From contig JAKAWU010000006.1 in the NCBI GenBank assembly GCA_021816965.1, positions 1-36,885 on the forward strand: a stretch of DNA of 36,885 nt, read 5' to 3'. Under the pieces are notes generated by a model. The model ran no database searches and was not told where the DNA came from. It saw only the letters and a program-made list of their open reading frames with translations. The DNA comes from Thermoplasmata archaeon. Its GTDB lineage: Archaea > Thermoplasmatota > Thermoplasmata > Thermoplasmatales > Thermoplasmataceae. Position numbers and translations under genes: made by a program. Below, piece after piece: positions 1,247-8,275 of this stretch (position 1 is the first letter of the stretch; every line of letters starts with the position of its first letter).

Positions 1247-4159
1247 TTAATTTTTGACTCTGTGTTCATCAAGATCATAGTTCATTACATCTTTACCTGA
1301 TATAGCCGCAAAAATTAATTCCATTGCCCATTTGTCTATTTCGCTAACAATTTCCTTTGTTGAGAATAGAGTACGAAAAGCATCTGGATGGACTAATATT
1401 GAAATCTTCCATATTGACTCATACAGTACCTTAGCAATTTCGGAAATTTCCTTTGCCTCAATAATCCTCGCACCTACTATTCCGCCTGACTGAAAATACC
1501 TCTTCCTAGTTTCATTCGGAACATATGACAAATTTCGCTTAAATCCTCTCTTAGATGCTGGATCTGGTGGGATGTCAATCAATAAAATAAACTTATTTTG
1601 GAGCTTTTTGTCAAATTCCTCCTTAGTCTTTATTCCCGTTTCCGGGTTATACATGTCTTTGTAGAGTATGTCTTTTACCTTTTCATTTAACTTAATTGAA
1701 ATTTCAGCTTTCTTATCCCACTTCAAGTTATATATGAGGTCCATCAAAGCGTCTGAAGGCTTTGAGACCAATATAGGAAAGTAATTATTTGCACCATCGA
1801 GTAGCCTAGAGACAGAATCAAATCCGACCGTTACTAGTTCCTTATAAAGCACCCTTCTGATCAGATCCTCAGCGAGCCCGGTTGAAGCATTACTATGACC
1901 TATGAATTTTTCATTTATTATTCTCATGTTTTCGAAATGTTTAATCATTAACTCATCATAGGAGTTGACATTGTAACCTTCCTGGCTTATCGGGTTTAGG
2001 TCTGTTCCTAATGTTTTGATATATTCACCAAAATTGTTTTTGAACTCTTTTGAGCTTTTATCCTCAGAGGCGGAACTTGAAAATGCCCCTTCCGGCAATT
2101 TCAACGCAACTAAATGTTGAATCATAGTTTTGATTATTCTGACAACATGATGCCAGTAGACGGATTCGAACATTTCGTATCGTGCGAATGTTACGGCCTC
2201 AGCAGAAATTTTTCCTCTTTCATAAACGCCTAAATTTGATTTAAAATTCCCATACTCGTCATGGTCTATTGCATATGTTAGGTCATTTATCAATTTTTCG
2301 TGGTCAATCTGACCTCCATAAGTTAGCCCGCATGCTTTACTGTCTCTTTGAATATAATCAATCTTGTCACAATCAATGGGTCCGTCTATCACAGCAGACA
2401 AGAGATTGGATTTAATGCTCTCTTTATATATCTCTAGATTGATATTTACATGGGATGATACCGAATAATGGGAGCCTTTATTTATTATATCGGCAATGAC
2501 ACCTAATATAGCATTCTTTTCATCATCATTTTTAGCATCAGGGAACCATTTCATTATAATGTCTTTTATCGTGTGTCCTTCTTTATCTTTGATGTCAGAG
2601 CTCAAAAAATTAATACTAAATATCGAATGAAGCAATAACTCTGGTGCTACCTCTTCGATATCATGCGCTAACGGAAATTGCCCTAGATCGTGAAGAATTG
2701 CAGCCAACATTAGTTCGGTCGCATCATCTCTAGTCACCAAGCCTCTGAAAACGGGGTACCACGGGTCATTGAATAGAGCTCTAATATATTTAAGTGAGTA
2801 AGTATATACCCCTATTGAGTGTTCATACCTCGTGTCTGTGGCCGTGGGATATACAAAAGAAACAAACCCTAATTGGGAAAAGTATTTAAGCCTCGAAAAT
2901 AACGGATGCTCAATCAAAGACTTAAGATTGTCTGTCATCGTTGTCATAATTAGGGGAATTATCCGCAGTAATTTTACTGGAGATAATGACATTTCGGGAA
3001 TTTCACTTTCCAGCGTCCAGGCTCCCTCTTCTTTCCTTACATCAATAATAAACTGTACAAGACTTTCGTACCTAATTTCAACATCATAGTCATTGCTAGT
3101 CAATCCTGGGAATACTTCCCCAATTGTGTAAGGCGGGTTTTCATACGGAACATTTCTGGCTCTTATTTGTATTAAAGAACTTCCATTTTTATTGTTTTCA
3201 CCGTCTAATAGCCTTGTTGCTAAGAAGTGCAATGCCCTGAATCTAGGAGACAAAGTGATTTTTTCCCCTAATTTAGCTTCTATGTCTTGTAAAAGTTCAA
3301 GTATGGTAATTCCAAGTGAGTAGTAGTCAAACCCCCTCTTTAATTTACTTCGCTTCATTCTTATGGATAGGTGATCGCCCCTTGTTCCATCACCTGTTTT
3401 CCACTGCAAAATAAAAGGATGTGAGTAAGGTTCTGAGACTGCCAAAGAGACGTCATCATCATTAATAACATTATCTCTTGGATTCAACAGTTTTTCAATA
3501 CTCCCCATATCCACCAGAACTACTCTCTTGTCCTTGTCTATCATACAGTTTTTAGGTTTGAAATCTAAGTAGACATAACCCTGCTTATTAATATAATCTA
3601 GGACTTCAGCGGATTCTCGTACAAAACTCAAAAACTCGTTGATCAGTTCATGCAAAGGTCCGGAATCAAAGTTCATACTGTTAGTAAGAATTTTTTCACA
3701 CTTCTCCTTGAAATAATTTCCTGATTCTTTTCCATCGATCCATTCTTCTATGATAAACGGGATACTCCGTCCTTCGAGACTGATCTCTCTCGAATCGAAA
3801 AATCTGACAATTCCTTTATGATTTAGCTTCTTTAGGAGATTTATTTCTTTGTTTATTCCATTGCTGTCGTCTAATCTGTCTGGCCTAGGAAACTTAAGCG
3901 CATAAACCATACCCGTTCTAATATGTTGAATGTTGAATACATAACTAGTTCCGCCCCTGAACTTGAATGTAATCAGTCCTCCAATGCTCCCCTCATTTGT
4001 CTTCCCACAATAAAAATCGTTTTTCAAGACTTCGCATATTTCATCTAGAATAGTTAGAACCTTGTCTATCTCTTCATCTGCTTGCTTTTCCGAAAAATTC
4101 TTATCTTCTGTTAGGTATTTTTTTATATGCTTCCTTAATTGGTCAAAGACAGAGTCCAT
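1247..4159 (-). CDS. Fused Ser/Thr protein kinase and SAMHD1-type HD phosphohydrolase
   Basis: The protein has about 970 residues from the start chosen here; residue numbers below use the longer 1022-residue frame beginning at 4315. A short helical N-terminus is followed by a eukaryotic-type kinase domain (about 115-345). It has FKFRGGTSYVF (Gly loop), YALKF with K141, E157 (helix C), YVYLDFKPKN with D251 and N256, VDMGS in place of DFG (D269) and FDYYSLGITILEL. A linker leads to an HD domain (about 455-700): TRYEHSIGV (H499), LHDLGQFPLAH (H542, D543) and DGPIDCDKIDYIQRDS, the H..HD..D layout of SAMHD1/dGTPase-type triphosphohydrolases. The last 300 residues are family-unknown. Start: ATG 4157-4159 has a TATA-like box 29 nt upstream and looks leaderless. 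The longer frame to 4315 reads into the right end of the adjacent IS110 element. Both catalytic sets look intact. It could be a stress or antiviral nucleotide-depleting enzyme; that role is inferred. Confidence 0.85.
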   Translation of the reverse strand: MDSVFDQLRKHIKKYLTEDKNFSEKQADEEIDKVLTILDEICEVLKNDFYCGKTNEGSIGGLITFKFRGGTSYVFNIQHIRTGMVYALKFPRPDRLDDSNGINKEINLLKKLNHKGIVRFFDSREISLEGRSIPFIIEEWIDGKESGNYFKEKCEKILTNSMNFDSGPLHELINEFLSFVRESAEVLDYINKQGYVYLDFKPKNCMIDKDKRVVLVDMGSIEKLLNPRDNVINDDDVSLAVSEPYSHPFILQWKTGDGTRGDHLSIRMKRSKLKRGFDYYSLGITILELLQDIEAKLGEKITLSPRFRALHFLATRLLDGENNKNGSSLIQIRARNVPYENPPYTIGEVFPGLTSNDYDVEIRYESLVQFIIDVRKEEGAWTLESEIPEMSLSPVKLLRIIPLIMTTMTDNLKSLIEHPLFSRLKYFSQLGFVSFVYPTATDTRYEHSIGVYTYSLKYIRALFNDPWYPVFRGLVTRDDATELMLAAILHDLGQFPLAHDIEEVAPELLLHSIFSINFLSSDIKDKEGHTIKDIIMKWFPDAKNDDEKNAILGVIADIINKGSHYSVSSHVNINLEIYKESIKSNLLSAVIDGPIDCDKIDYIQRDSKACGLTYGGQIDHEKLINDLTYAIDHDEYGNFKSNLGVYERGKISAEAVTFARYEMFESVYWHHVVRIIKTMIQHLVALKLPEGAFSSSASEDKSSKEFKNNFGEYIKTLGTDLNPISQEGYNVNSYDELMIKHFENMRIINEKFIGHSNASTGLAEDLIRRVLYKELVTVGFDSVSRLLDGANNYFPILVSKPSDALMDLIYNLKWDKKAEISIKLNEKVKDILYKDMYNPETGIKTKEEFDKKLQNKFILLIDIPPDPASKRGFKRNLSYVPNETRKRYFQSGGIVGARIIEAKEISEIAKVLYESIWKISILVHPDAFRTLFSTKEIVSEIDKWAMELIFAAISGKDVMNYDLDEHRVKN

Positions 4160-4183
4160 GCTAAAAGATAGTTGGATCCCAGT

Positions 4184-4192
4184 ATTTATAAT
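4184..4192 (-). promoter_or_regulatory. TATA box of the kinase-HD gene
   Basis: The minus strand reads TTATAAATA, centred about 29 nt upstream of ATG 4159. This is the spacing of an archaeal leaderless promoter. The box lies outside the IS110 element, so the native promoter appears intact. Confidence 0.6.
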
Positions 4193-4256
4193 TTGTGAGT
4201 TATCGTGCTCTGTTGAATGAAGAAGAGTAGACACAATCTCTTCATTAAACAGGTAT

Positions 4257-4279
4257 GTAAATATCCAGCCTGCTTTTCC
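4257..4279 (-). repeat. Right-end inverted repeat of the IS110-family element
   Basis: The minus strand reads GGAAAAGCAGGC, then four bases, then TATTTAC. It is an exact match in both blocks to the other end of the element at 5631-5656. This sequence also encodes the apparent N-terminus of the over-long 1022-residue reading frame, which argues against that start. Confidence 0.7.
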
Positions 4280-4324
4280 CCTCACATTGTCATACCCTCC
4301 AGATATTTGAAACATCCTGTGGAC

Positions 4325-4478
4325 CTGGATAGCTGTCTGCCCGATCCCCCCTTTCCCCCGAACAGGTATGAGCGTTCTGGACGCAAATTGACCATATAGG
4401 GGAGGGGAATCACTGCACTCAGAGCAAAGACGAGGATGCCAGTTGAATGAAAGCAGTGGAGCAGACAGCCACGTCCAG
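4325..4478 (-). ncRNA. Candidate bridge RNA / seekRNA of the IS110-family element
   Basis: This 154-nt stretch directly 3' of the transposase gene folds into a closed structure. The outer stem is CTGGA/TCCAG (4325-4329 with 4474-4478). After small internal loops comes GCTGTCTGC/GCAGACAGC (4332-4340 with 4461-4469). Inside are two further hairpins. One is CACTGC/GCAGTG (4411-4416 with 4453-4458) with a 36-nt interior. The other pairs the G-tracts at 4399-4407 with the C-tracts at 4346-4359 and is capped by GCGT/ACGC (4372-4375 with 4381-4384) above a large asymmetric internal loop. Two stem-loops with big internal loops match the architecture described for IS110 guide RNAs, and IS1111-group elements encode theirs downstream of the transposase. 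Which loop would bind target or donor was not resolved. Confidence 0.62.
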
Positions 4479-4492
4479 TGTATCCGGGCGTT

Positions 4493-5581
4493 TCAATCAT
4501 CTTCCAGGTCTGACACCTTTCTCTCTGTGAGCATTACGTTTTCGTATTTCCATGGCTTCCTGTTGCTGAGCATGAAGTAAATCATCCTGAGCAGCTTCCT
4601 CATTGTTAGTACGTGGGCGAGTTTACCTGAACCCGTTCTCTCTTTCTGATGGTTGTAGTATTCCATTATGGGTTTGTTTCTAATCTTAACGGTATCCACA
4701 GCCATGGAGAGAGCCCATCTTCCAGTTGATGCCCCCTCCTTGGACATGTGACCTCTCCTTGTTATTGAGGAGGAATCCCTGTTGCTTGGAACTATGCTGA
4801 AGAACGAGGCTAGCTTACTCTCATTTGGAAATCTCTTGATATCACCTATGTATAATGGTAACAGGAAAGCGAGATAATAATCTATTCCAGGAATAGACAT
4901 AAGGAGCTTGACGTCCTCTGATTCCCTTGCCCTTATCCTTTCTTCCAGAGGAGGGATCTGATCCTCAAGGAATTTCAGCCTTCTGAGCATTGTTTTAAGA
5001 ACTATATCCTTGTCACTGTTGAATTTGATGCTCTCCATTGCCTCCCTTCTCTTCCCAGAGAAGTTCTCACTGCTCTCTGGGATTGTATCGTATAATCCCT
5101 CTCTTTTGAGGTAGCTGATTATGGATGTTTTCATCCTAGAGACTTCCTGCCCAAACTTTGCCCTCTGGATAAGGAGGTCACGGAATATTCTGTCTTCTTC
5201 TGACAGCAGGTGGGATTCCGGAATCATGTTCACCAGGTGAAGCTTTGCCAGCTTCACTGAGTCAACATGATCGTTCTCTCTCTTAGACTTCACTATCCAT
5301 GAAAGCACCTTGGGGTGAGCAACAGTGATACTGTCATATCCAAGTGACTTCAGCTTGTTGAACACTACATAAGCCATTCCGGATGCTTCAAACGCTATCC
5401 TTGTTTCAGAAGGTATCTTCTCCCTGAACTCCCTGTATCCATCTGAGTTCATTGAAAATGTGAACTCTTCAATGATGTCTCCGGAAGGAGACATGTATGT
5501 TGCAACGCTTTCCTTTTCCCCAATGTCTATCCCTACTGCATAGTCGTTCATGTTTTCCATATTCACTTTCTTTCTCTTCAT
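4493..5581 (-). CDS. IS110-family DEDD recombinase (transposase)
   Basis: The protein has 362 residues, normal for the family. The N-terminal RuvC-like domain carries AVGIDIGEKES (D19), RIAFEASG (E65) and ENDHVDSVKLAKL (D104, D107), the DEDD set. A coiled-coil-like middle (about 140-230) follows. The C-terminal transposase_20 domain has LMSIPGIDYYLAFLLPLYIG and then SSSITRRGHMSKEGASTGRW, which includes the candidate nucleophilic serine. The start is supported by a Shine-Dalgarno GAGGTGG 9 nt upstream (minus strand, 5590-5596). No frameshift is seen, so the enzyme should be active. With the RNA downstream it would catalyse RNA-guided insertion of the element. Confidence 0.93.
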   Translation of the reverse strand: MKRKKVNMENMNDYAVGIDIGEKESVATYMSPSGDIIEEFTFSMNSDGYREFREKIPSETRIAFEASGMAYVVFNKLKSLGYDSITVAHPKVLSWIVKSKRENDHVDSVKLAKLHLVNMIPESHLLSEEDRIFRDLLIQRAKFGQEVSRMKTSIISYLKREGLYDTIPESSENFSGKRREAMESIKFNSDKDIVLKTMLRRLKFLEDQIPPLEERIRARESEDVKLLMSIPGIDYYLAFLLPLYIGDIKRFPNESKLASFFSIVPSNRDSSSITRRGHMSKEGASTGRWALSMAVDTVKIRNKPIMEYYNHQKERTGSGKLAHVLTMRKLLRMIYFMLSNRKPWKYENVMLTERKVSDLEDD

Positions 5582-5596
5582 TCTTTTCCACCTCTA

Positions 5597-5627
5597 AAGC
5601 GACACCAAGCACTGGCTAGTGTCGCTT
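5597..5627 (-). other. Hairpin in the left end of the IS110-family element
   Basis: AAGCGACAC (5597-5605) and GTGTCGCTT (5619-5627) form a 9-bp perfect stem with a 13-nt loop, immediately upstream of the transposase Shine-Dalgarno. It may limit translation or be an end-recognition structure. IS110-group elements encode their guide RNA on this side, but the region here (about 75 nt) is short for that. Confidence 0.5.
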
Positions 5628-5630
5628 GAA

Positions 5631-5656
5631 GGAAAAGCAGGCGGCAGGGTATTTAC
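5631..5656 (+). repeat. Left-end inverted repeat of the IS110-family element
   Basis: The plus strand reads GGAAAAGCAGGC (5631-5642), seven bases, then TATTTAC (5650-5656), matching the other end in inverted orientation. Confidence 0.7.
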
Positions 5657-5684
5657 TACTCAATCAGAGCAGATCGTTCAAAAG

Positions 5685-5960: not shown

Positions 5961-6173
5961 TTATTGCCTCTTGGGCTGATCCTGGAGGCATCCTCTCGTT
6001 TTTATGAAGGTTCTCCCCTTATCGTACAGCGCTGAGAATCCAGTTTCGTTGAAATCGTTAACCCAGCCCTCTACTGTTCTTGGGGAACGGCCAGGCATCC
6101 CTGCCACCTCGTAGCAGCTCATGCCTTCTGCTACCATCAACACCACCAAGCACGGAGACCTGTTGTGTTTTCA
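5961..6173 (-). pseudogene. IS630-family transposase, N-terminal helix-turn-helix fragment
   Basis: The reading VVLMVAEGMSCYEVAGMPG then RSPRTVEGWVNDFNETGFSA and LYDKGR is the N-terminal winged-helix region of IS630/ISNCY-like transposases (family pattern: vaEG.S..EIA...G.s..TV..W...f...G...L.D). The frame is cut by a stop just upstream and loses similarity after DKGR. The DDE catalytic domain is missing. It is a relic about 200 bp long. Confidence 0.7.
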
Positions 6174-7244: not shown

Positions 7245-7704
7245 TTTTCCTATAAACCTCCCATGAAAATCTCAATGCCCATTGATCTCTCTTCTTTTCA
7301 TGTTTCCAACTGAATGTAATGCGGAATTAGCATTTCAGCAATGATTCAGTCACTTTGCATATGGAAAGCTTTATTCATGGGATCAGCATGTTCAATCAAT
7401 GAGTAACATTGTAGATTACGGTCTCCGTGAAGCATATAATTCCATGAAATCCATGGACAAACTTGCGGAAATCGATCCCATGATAAATTGGGAATTATTG
7501 AGGCCCATAGTGAGAGAACTTTACAGGAATGATACAGAGAAAGGCGGAAGGCCCAATATTGATGAGATTGTCATGATAAAGACACTTTTCCTGCAGAGCA
7601 TGTACAACTATTCCGATGAATCCATAGAGAGAGAACTGTACAACCGTATTGACTTCCGGAACTTCCTCCACTATCCGGAAATAATACCTGATTCAAGGTC
7701 AATC
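7245..7704 (+). mobile_element. IS5-like element, 5' portion only
   Basis: The left end TTTTCCTATAAACCTCCCAT begins at 7245. The same terminus recurs at 35031 and, diverged, on the minus strand ending at 23293. A leader of about 150 bp precedes the transposase start at 7399. The element is lost after about 7704; no right end was found. It truncates the ABC ATPase remnant. Confidence 0.7.
7399..7704 (+). pseudogene. IS5-like transposase, N-terminal DUF772 fragment
   Basis: The frame starts MSNIVDYGLREAYNSMKSMD and contains RPNIDEIVMIKTLFLQSMYN, YSDESIERELYNRIDFRNFL and PDSRSI. This is the DUF772 (InsH N-terminal) domain that precedes the DDE catalytic domain. In relatives PDSR(S/T)I leads on to W.FRERL; here that is replaced after residue 102 by unrelated sequence running to a stop at 7815. 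No catalytic residues remain, so it is not functional. Confidence 0.85.
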
Positions 7705-7762
7705 TGTGTATATTATGATCTAAATCACCAGAATTTTTTTACTCTTTTCCCTGAATTATTGT

Positions 7763-8275
7763 TTAGAGGAGAATATACATGTACAATTCATCAAAATACC
7801 TGTTTCCACGCTTGATCGATTTTGGCCGCATACCGTAGTCTATAAAACCGAGATTCCTGTATAGAGAATTGGCTCTCTTATTTGTGGTGAAAACACTCAG
7901 TGTCACGATTTCAAGTTTTCCTCTTGCAGCGTCCAGTGCACCTAAGATAAGTGCTTTTCCTATACCTCTGTCTCTGTATCCCTCCCTGATCGCAATTCCG
8001 AGAACTCCATTGTGTGAGACTTCAGAACCAGGTCTAATTCGGTGAATATCGCATATCCCAACAACTTTTCCATCTTCCACAGCAACCCTCACGAATGCAT
8101 CTCCTTTCATAGTGTTTCTGTAAAGATTTGAAAACCACTCAACTTCACTCTCAAAAGAAGGTTTGTCATGGAAGAATATGATGCCAAATTCTTGGTCTCT
8201 CTTAACTTCTTCATAGTACGAATAATAATTTTCTATAAGATCATTCATATCATTCCATTGAAGTTCTCTTATCAT
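7763..8275 (-). CDS. GNAT-family N-acetyltransferase
   Basis: The protein has 170 residues, typical for a single-domain GNAT. Motif A is visible as VLGIAIREGYRDRGIGKALI (R/Q-x-x-G-x-G/A: RDRGIGKA), which binds the acetyl-CoA pyrophosphate. The C-terminal motif B reads NKRANSLYRNLGF, the usual N..a..lY.k.GF. The substrate cannot be told (protein N-terminus, amino acid or small amine). Start ATG 8275 follows an A/T-rich TATA-like stretch by about 28 nt. It stands alone next to IS debris. Confidence 0.88.
   Translation of the reverse strand: MIRELQWNDMNDLIENYYSYYEEVKRDQEFGIIFFHDKPSFESEVEWFSNLYRNTMKGDAFVRVAVEDGKVVGICDIHRIRPGSEVSHNGVLGIAIREGYRDRGIGKALILGALDAARGKLEIVTLSVFTTNKRANSLYRNLGFIDYGMRPKSIKRGNRYFDELYMYILL

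What the first reader, a model, noticed from the sequence alone, without database searches (positions are those of the whole stretch)
4325..4478. Readable bridge-RNA (seekRNA) candidate in an archaeal IS110-family element
A 154-nt segment downstream of the DEDD transposase closes with 9-bp and 5-bp perfect stems and contains two further stem-loops, one with G-tract/C-tract pairing and a large asymmetric internal loop. This matches the guide-RNA architecture of IS110 systems; the downstream location plus sub-terminal inverted repeats match the IS1111 group. An element from an acidophilic, probably thermophilic archaeon would be a useful new source of RNA-guided recombinases.
Basis: partly seen in the sequence, partly recalled or inferred. 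Interest (0 to 1): 0.72.

Follow-up and report, generated by a model that had tools for sequence, protein, structure and literature searches.

The report
Bridge RNA of archaeal jumping element
An archaeal jumping DNA element of the IS110 family carries, just after its recombinase gene, an RNA with two loops whose sequences match the DNA sites it joins, and its relatives appear to aim at the tips of other jumping elements.

Summary
Window 4250-5666 (minus strand) is a complete IS110-family element of a Thermoplasmata archaeon. Its 362-aa DEDD recombinase (4493-5581) is followed by an RNA gene at 4321-4487. Homologous RNAs (14, then 27, then 10 found afterwards in other families of the class) keep one fold with extensive compensatory change. 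The two internal loops behave as target and donor loops: the right and left target guides match each element's own flanks better than other elements' flanks (permutation p about 1e-5), and the donor guide co-varies with the element's right end. Guide order (top-strand guide first), downstream position and a 12-bp sub-terminal repeat are IS1111-type. But the repeat lies 24 and 18 bp inside the ends (7 and 3 bp in IS1111), and the conserved Ser-Gly is Ser-Ser. The window copy sits in such an IS5-type tip. No transcript or activity was tested; thermophily is untested. New member of a known kind, with a useful natural guide-target data set.

The parts
4250..5666 (-). whole element, 1417 bp counting the core TG at both ends
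   Evidence: ends set by where 12-16 homologues stop being alike and by the shared TG at both junctions
4493..5581 (-). IS110-family DEDD recombinase, 362 aa; D19, E65, D104, D107 invariant; S270-S271 where others have Ser-Gly
4321..4487 (-). bridge RNA / seekRNA gene (predicted)
   Evidence: fold z -4.86 for its core; covariation in 14, 27 and 10 sequences
4442..4451 (-). right target guide, 5' side of the target loop (TTCATTCAAC), complementary to the top strand right of the core
   Evidence: 8 of 9 positions match the window's own right flank; permutation test over 20 elements
4420..4425 (-). left target guide, 3' side of the target loop (GCTCTG), same sense as the left flank plus core
   Evidence: 6 of 8 positions match before the core; permutation test over 11 elements
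4387..4392 (-). right donor guide, 5' side of the donor loop (GTCAAT), short complement of the left end ATTGA
   Evidence: short; class-level covariation in 11 of 12 elements
4363..4370 (-). left donor guide, 3' side of the donor loop (CATACCTG), same as the right end CATACCTG
   Evidence: 8 of 8 in the window; 34 elements tested
5665..5666 (-). core TG at the left end
4250..4251 (-). core TG at the right end
5631..5642 (-). left sub-terminal inverted repeat, 24 bp inside the end
4268..4279 (-). right sub-terminal inverted repeat, 18 bp inside the end
5598..5626 (-). hairpin between the left repeat and the start codon; its extended form covers the GAGGTGG ribosome-binding-like sequence at 5588-5594
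   Evidence: folds of left ends
4205..4249 (-). right part of the target: remnant of an IS5-type end, with a second copy of the tip (GCTCTGTTGAATGAA, + strand 4207-4221)
5667..5675 (-). left part of the target (GATCTGCTC)

Best explanation
This is an RNA-guided IS110-family mobile element whose RNA lies downstream of the recombinase, as in the IS1111 type. The RNA is closed by a long outer stem and carries two hairpins, each interrupted by an internal loop. The first loop reads the target: its 5' strand pairs with the top strand right of a TG core, and its 3' strand pairs with the bottom strand left of it. The second loop reads the donor, that is, the joined right and left ends of the excised circle: its 3' strand has the sequence of the right end (CATACCTG) and its 5' strand is a short complement of the left end. 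The recombinase then joins donor and target at the TG core without a target duplication. Shown here by sequence: element ends, fold, covariation, guide-flank and guide-end matching. Inferred from the known family: transcription, binding to the recombinase, circle intermediate, strand exchange through S270. In this lineage the target loops of three subgroups are set to the tips of other repeated elements, two of them coding for IS5-like transposases, so the element inserts into other transposons' ends.
For: Recombinase family with D19, E65, D104, D107 invariant in 10 of 10. RNA covariation: 22 of 36 pairs with two-sided changes, covariation 0.565 against 0.274 shuffled and at most 0.139 for slid registers; 28 of 36 pairs in 27 sequences and in the 10 found later (both of these alignments were fitted to the model). 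Right target guide: mean 6.7 of 9 own against 4.4 cross, n = 20 of 27, p 1e-5; 6.9 against 4.6 for the 11 elements with intact gene and both ends, p 2e-5; 6.4 against 4.3 for 17 unique guides, p 1e-5. Left target guide: 4.55 of 8 against 2.45, n = 11, p 1e-5; unique guides n = 9, p 3e-4 (all). Later-found set, n = 10: right target guide 4.8 against 3.5, p 8e-4; left donor guide 6.6 against 5.0, p 4e-4; 17 distinct donor pairs p 1e-5. Guide-built pattern GCTCTGTTGAATGAA: 41 hits against 2 for the reversed pattern, four inverted pairs about 1.4 kb apart; 8 of 30 fetched loci hold the IS5-type transposase. Joined flanks of L009 restore a perfect tip. Second pattern: 10 of 22 hits are the end of one 1211-bp repeated element. 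Third pattern: 9 of 15 loci end in the same repeat boundary.
Against: For the window alone, a blind search for the longest match between the whole RNA and its target finds nothing special (7 and 6 nt, elsewhere in the RNA); the case rests on the family. L012 does not match its right flank in register (2 of 9), and L018 and L120 reach only 4 of 9. L011 breaks the donor match at the core (CATACCAG) and the left-end match; it is a chimaera. The right donor guide is only 4-5 nt. Reversed controls of the second pattern gave more hits than the pattern itself, and those of the third gave fewer but not few, so counts alone prove nothing there. R1 finds nothing in 21 loci with distant IS110 genes. No RNA data exist.
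Confidence: 0.9

Rival explanations
1. The structure is only a 3' untranslated hairpin or terminator of the recombinase gene, or a DNA structure at the element's end, without a guide function.
For: It begins a few bases after the stop codon (stop at 4493-4495, RNA from 4487) and both strands fold well, as for any inverted repeat in DNA.
Against: The loops vary in step with the flanks of each element and with the element's own end, which a terminator does not explain; the fold has two loop-bearing hairpins within a long stem, conserved with compensatory change.
Confidence: 0.05
2. The match of guide and flank comes from mis-set element ends: part of the flank is really the element's end, so guide and 'flank' are copies inherited together.
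For: Some close copies share both guide and target (WIN, L009, L027), and L009 and L027 share 187 bp of right flank at 92%.
Against: Copies with the same guide (L030, L036, L125, L113) sit in otherwise different flanks that share only the predicted target bases; the predicted targets recur, without the element, as tips of other repeats; the signal holds for unique guides only.
Confidence: 0.04
3. The target of the window-type element is a genomic palindrome or regulatory repeat, not a transposon tip.
For: In the window the target is one arm of a short inverted repeat, and only 8 of 30 fetched loci hold the IS5-type transposase.
Against: Four inverted pairs 1.40-1.45 kb apart; the three read in full flank IS5-type transposase genes.
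Confidence: 0.12

Closest known systems
IS1111-type seekRNA elements (ISEc11, ISPa11, ISKpn4; PMC11187229)
   Same: RNA downstream of the recombinase gene; sub-terminal inverted repeats of 11-13 bp; top-strand guide 5' of the bottom-strand guide; specific targets that differ between elements
   Different: repeats 24 and 18 bp from the ends here, against 7 (or 6) and 3; recombinase 362 aa, against 330-350; Ser-Ser in place of Ser-Gly; a donor loop is evident
IS621 bridge RNA (PMC11208160, PMC11208158)
   Same: two internal loops, target loop first and donor loop second; each loop has a left and a right guide that include the core dinucleotide; DEDD plus serine recombinase
   Different: IS621 RNA lies upstream in the left end and its left guide is 5' of its right guide; core CT there, TG here; IS621 has 328-aa protein with S241-G242
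IS4321/IS5075 (IS1111 family, target Tn21-family terminal inverted repeats; title seen in the reference list of PMC11187229)
   Same: an RNA-guided type of element placed in the terminal inverted repeat of another transposon
   Different: here archaeal, and the targets are tips of IS5-type and other repeats; at least three target classes in one lineage
Haloarchaeal IS110-family transposases (29-31% identity)
   Same: nearest named plasmid relatives of the protein
   Different: the R1 model finds no such RNA around the 4 of them that were read

Membership tests
IS110 family (DEDD recombinase with bridge RNA) | DEDD_Tnp_IS110 and Transposase_20 domains | tested here: met
   PF01548 6.6e-11, PF02371 5.1e-15; NF033542 161.9 bits, cut-off 140
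IS110 family (DEDD recombinase with bridge RNA) | catalytic D, E, D, D and serine | tested here: met
   D19, E65, D104, D107 and S270 invariant in 10 of 10; aligned to IS621
IS110 family (DEDD recombinase with bridge RNA) | Gly after the catalytic Ser (Ser-Gly motif) | tested here: not met
   Ser in 10 of 10. In distant relatives my motif pattern matched 5 of 21 loci: 4 Ser-Gly, 1 Ser-Ser
IS110 family (DEDD recombinase with bridge RNA) | RNA with target loop and donor loop that pair with both strands around the core | tested here: met
   pairing inferred from sequence, not measured
IS1111 group | long non-coding region with the RNA downstream of the gene | tested here: met
   RNA 4321-4487, gene 4493-5581, both minus
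IS1111 group | sub-terminal inverted repeats, usually 11-13 bp | tested here: met
   12 bp perfect
IS1111 group | terminal extensions of 7 (or 6) bp left and 3 bp right of the repeats | tested here: not met
   24 and 18 bp, counting the core TG
IS1111 group | top-strand guide 5' of bottom-strand guide | tested here: met
   compared with PMC11187229 sections 9 and 12
IS1111 group | transposase of 330-350 aa that clusters with IS1111 in a tree | tested here: inconclusive
   length 362 aa is outside the range; no tree with named IS1111 proteins was built
IS110 / IS1111 | RNA expressed and bound by the recombinase; excision as a circle | not testable with these tools
   needs RNA sequencing and assays

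The most novel reading that the evidence does not exclude
A Thermoplasmata lineage of RNA-guided elements with its own layout (RNA downstream, IS1111 guide order, IS621-like donor loop, deep-set repeats, Ser-Ser active-site loop) has specialised as a parasite of other transposons: its target loops have been re-set by evolution at least three times to the terminal repeats of unrelated mobile elements.
Probability: 0.5. Interest if true: 0.65.

Novelty: new member of a known kind. Interest (0 to 1): 0.48.

Why it matters
It adds an archaeal branch to the RNA-guided recombinases with the guide-to-target and guide-to-donor relations readable from natural copies, so the rules of pairing can be tested without bacterial systems. 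The repeated choice of other transposons' tips suggests why such elements survive: the target is present in many copies and mostly harmless to lose. The Ser-Ser motif, in place of a glycine that in IS621 contacts the RuvC domain (PMC11208158), makes a question about the active-site loop directly testable.

Tried and rejected
Rfam gave only four tRNAs. IMG/VR gave no relative. The search for an uninterrupted site of the window's copy, with the right flank, found none in 117 genomes of the order. An RNA-model search of 15 distant IS110 loci of the order, 4 haloarchaeal and 2 enterobacterial loci gave nothing. A blind longest-match search on the window's RNA alone gave chance-level matches. The RNAalifold consensus of the left-end hairpin on alignment A4 was poor because MAFFT put two subgroups one column out of register; the hairpin is therefore only shown sequence by sequence. 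Strand: a plus-strand RNA was considered and dropped because the gene, guides and homologues all fit the minus strand. A tree with named IS1111 proteins was not built. AlphaFold was not used: the family is clear from sequence.

Dropped rows: of 27 RNA hits, 20 had both a readable right target guide and a right flank and entered the test; 7 did not (truncated or rearranged). In one search the guides of L111 and L122 were set by hand; the intact-only test (n = 11) does not use them. In one search all guides and ends of the 10 later-found copies were read by eye into a fixed register; for L198, L199 and L201 the register seems one base off, which lowers their scores.

Full report
What is there. 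The segment 4325-4478 lies just 3' of an ORF on the minus strand (4493-5581, 362 aa) that is an IS110-family transposase by Pfam and NCBIfam and by profile match to IS621 and ISCro4 structures. On the minus strand the segment folds better than all 200 dinucleotide shuffles (z -4.86). The 5-bp and 9-bp stems are exact.

Homologues. A DNA search of the 117 genomes of the order found 19 with matches, a protein search 54. One scan of genome contigs named the closest: Thermoplasmatales archaeon I-plasma (88% of residues) and other Thermoplasmata bins. Aligning left and right ends of these shows where the likeness stops: left at TGATTGAG / TGACTGAG, right at CATACCTG / CATGCGTG. With the shared TG as core the element is 4250-5666, 1417 bp. 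The 12-bp sub-terminal repeats are 24 and 18 bp from the ends, counting the TG. Each element's left repeat changes together with its right repeat (read by eye).

Fold. In 14 homologues 36 pairs are predicted, 22 of them with two-sided changes. 95.2% of cells are paired against 79.8% in shuffles, and 99 two-sided cells against 40 (0 of 500 shuffles reach either; the number of further pair types is not above shuffles, 369 of 500); slid registers give 27-53%. A covariance model found 27 copies in 15 of 117 genomes and, in 400 genomes of the class, 18 genomes with a copy, five of them outside the order. Ten of those copies (6 from one genome, 4 from others) were never in the model: 94.4% paired, 57 two-sided cells against 16.7. 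Alignments were fitted to the model's structure and lean towards it.

Loops as guides. The first hairpin's loop has, on its 5' side, the complement of the right flank, and on its 3' side the sequence of the left flank, in register with the TG core. Examples: L009 TTCATTCAAC with flank GTTGAATGAA; L010 TTTGGGACA with TGTCCCAAA; L029 TGAGACA with TGTCTCA; L036 left TCACTTA with TCACTTA. Test: own flank against other elements' flanks, 100,000 permutations. Right guide 6.7 of 9 against 4.4 (20 elements), 6.9 against 4.6 (11 intact ones); left guide 4.55 of 8 against 2.45 (11 intact ones); p 1e-5 to 2e-5, and 3e-4 for the 9 unique left guides. Exceptions are L012 (2 of 9), L018 and L120 (4 of 9). 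In the ten later-found copies the right guide gives 4.8 against 3.5 (p 8e-4).

The second hairpin's loop has CATACCTG on its 3' side where the right end is CATACCTG, CATACGTG where it is CATACGTG (L010), ATGCGTG where it is CATGCGTG; GTATCTG and GTGTCTG in the distant L201 and L198 follow their own ends. Over 34 copies own match is 6.8 of 8 against 5.7, and over 17 distinct pairs 6.5 against 5.0 (p 1e-5 each). Its 5' side reads TCAAT where the left end is TGATTG (3 elements) and TCAGT/TCAGA where it is TGACTG (8 elements); the chimaeric L011 is the one exception of 12.

Targets. A pattern made from the window-type guides (GCTCTGTTGAATGAA, one mismatch) occurs 41 times in 29 of 117 genomes, against 2 for the reversed pattern. 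Four pairs lie inverted 1.40-1.45 kb apart; the three read in full bound an IS5-type transposase gene, and 8 of 30 fetched loci carry that protein. The window's own target is such a tip, 14 of 15 bases, and the joined flanks of L009 restore it exactly with its partner tip 350 bp away. The second pattern (ACTTATGTCCCAATA, from L030/L036 guides) gave 22 hits, fewer than its reversed control, but 10 of the 22 are one and the same end of a 1211-bp repeated element, whose likeness stops just after the target; four copies in one genome are identical. Its ORF resembles IS5-type transposases weakly, below the cut-off. The third (TTTTTGTCCCAAAGC, from L010) gave 43 hits; in 9 of 15 loci with a close variant the likeness stops right after the target, and one locus has both ends 1.38 kb apart; its ORF matches no family. 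So guides of three subgroups fit the tips of three repeats. For the subgroup around L015, L017 and L018 no such target was looked for.

Comparison. PMC11187229 (abstract, sections 6, 9, 12, 13 and passages read) gives for IS1111: RNA downstream, sub-terminal repeats usually 11-13 bp with extensions of 7 and 3 bp, transposase 330-350 aa, and the top-strand match 5' of the bottom-strand match. The element meets the first, the repeat length and the guide order, and fails the extensions and the length. PMC11208160 (section 12 and passages) predicts bridge RNAs in 93.0% of IS1111 elements in the right end, with potential donor-binding nucleotides often in a multi-loop; here the donor loop is a simple internal loop. 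PMC11208158 (passages) shows S241 as catalytic and G242 contacting D102; here the glycine is serine in 10 of 10, though Ser-Ser also occurs in one haloarchaeal relative. Insertion into another transposon's terminal repeats is known for IS4321/IS5075 (title in a reference list).

In print. Searches for seekRNA + IS1111, bridge RNA + IS110 + archaea, IS110 + Thermoplasmatales, bridge RNA + IS1111 since 2025, and IS110 with archaea and target terms listed no study of such RNAs in Thermoplasmata; the held library lacks most subscription papers.

Limits. All is inference from sequence. No RNA data, no uninterrupted orthologous site for this copy.

Noticed in passing
5588-5626 (minus strand), and the left ends of 15 homologues: A hairpin between the left sub-terminal repeat and the start codon; its extended form pairs the left repeat with the GGAGG-like sequence, which may hide the ribosome-binding site. 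The stem sequence differs between subgroups but the hairpin is kept.
   Followed up: partly
4493-5581, residues 270-271: Ser-Ser in place of the Ser-Gly motif in 10 of 10 close homologues.
   Followed up: partly
1247-4315 (minus strand): 1022-aa protein with kinase and HD domains; weak, below cut-off resemblance to the defence kinase MAD6. Its first ATG lies inside the element; the native start is probably near 4159-4161 (ATGGACTCTGTC).
   Followed up: no
L027 (G039:C18): A copy whose right end is split by an insertion of about 1.25 kb, then continues into the same flank as L009.
   Followed up: partly
L011 / L068: A chimaeric element: left end and first two thirds of the protein from one subgroup (71% identity), last third and RNA from the window's subgroup (88%).
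   Followed up: partly
L112, L114, L122, L127: RNA gene and right end without any recognisable recombinase gene next to them; probably remnants.
   Followed up: partly
L192-L197 (G236): Six copies in one genome of another family; at least three right flanks share TAAG...AATATTTTG(A/T)CAA, another repeated target.
   Followed up: no
7399-7815 (plus strand): Start of an IS5/IS1182-like transposase (DUF772), short.
   Followed up: no
about 5985-6160 (minus strand): Fragment that reads like the DNA-binding part of another transposase; seen by eye only.
   Followed up: no
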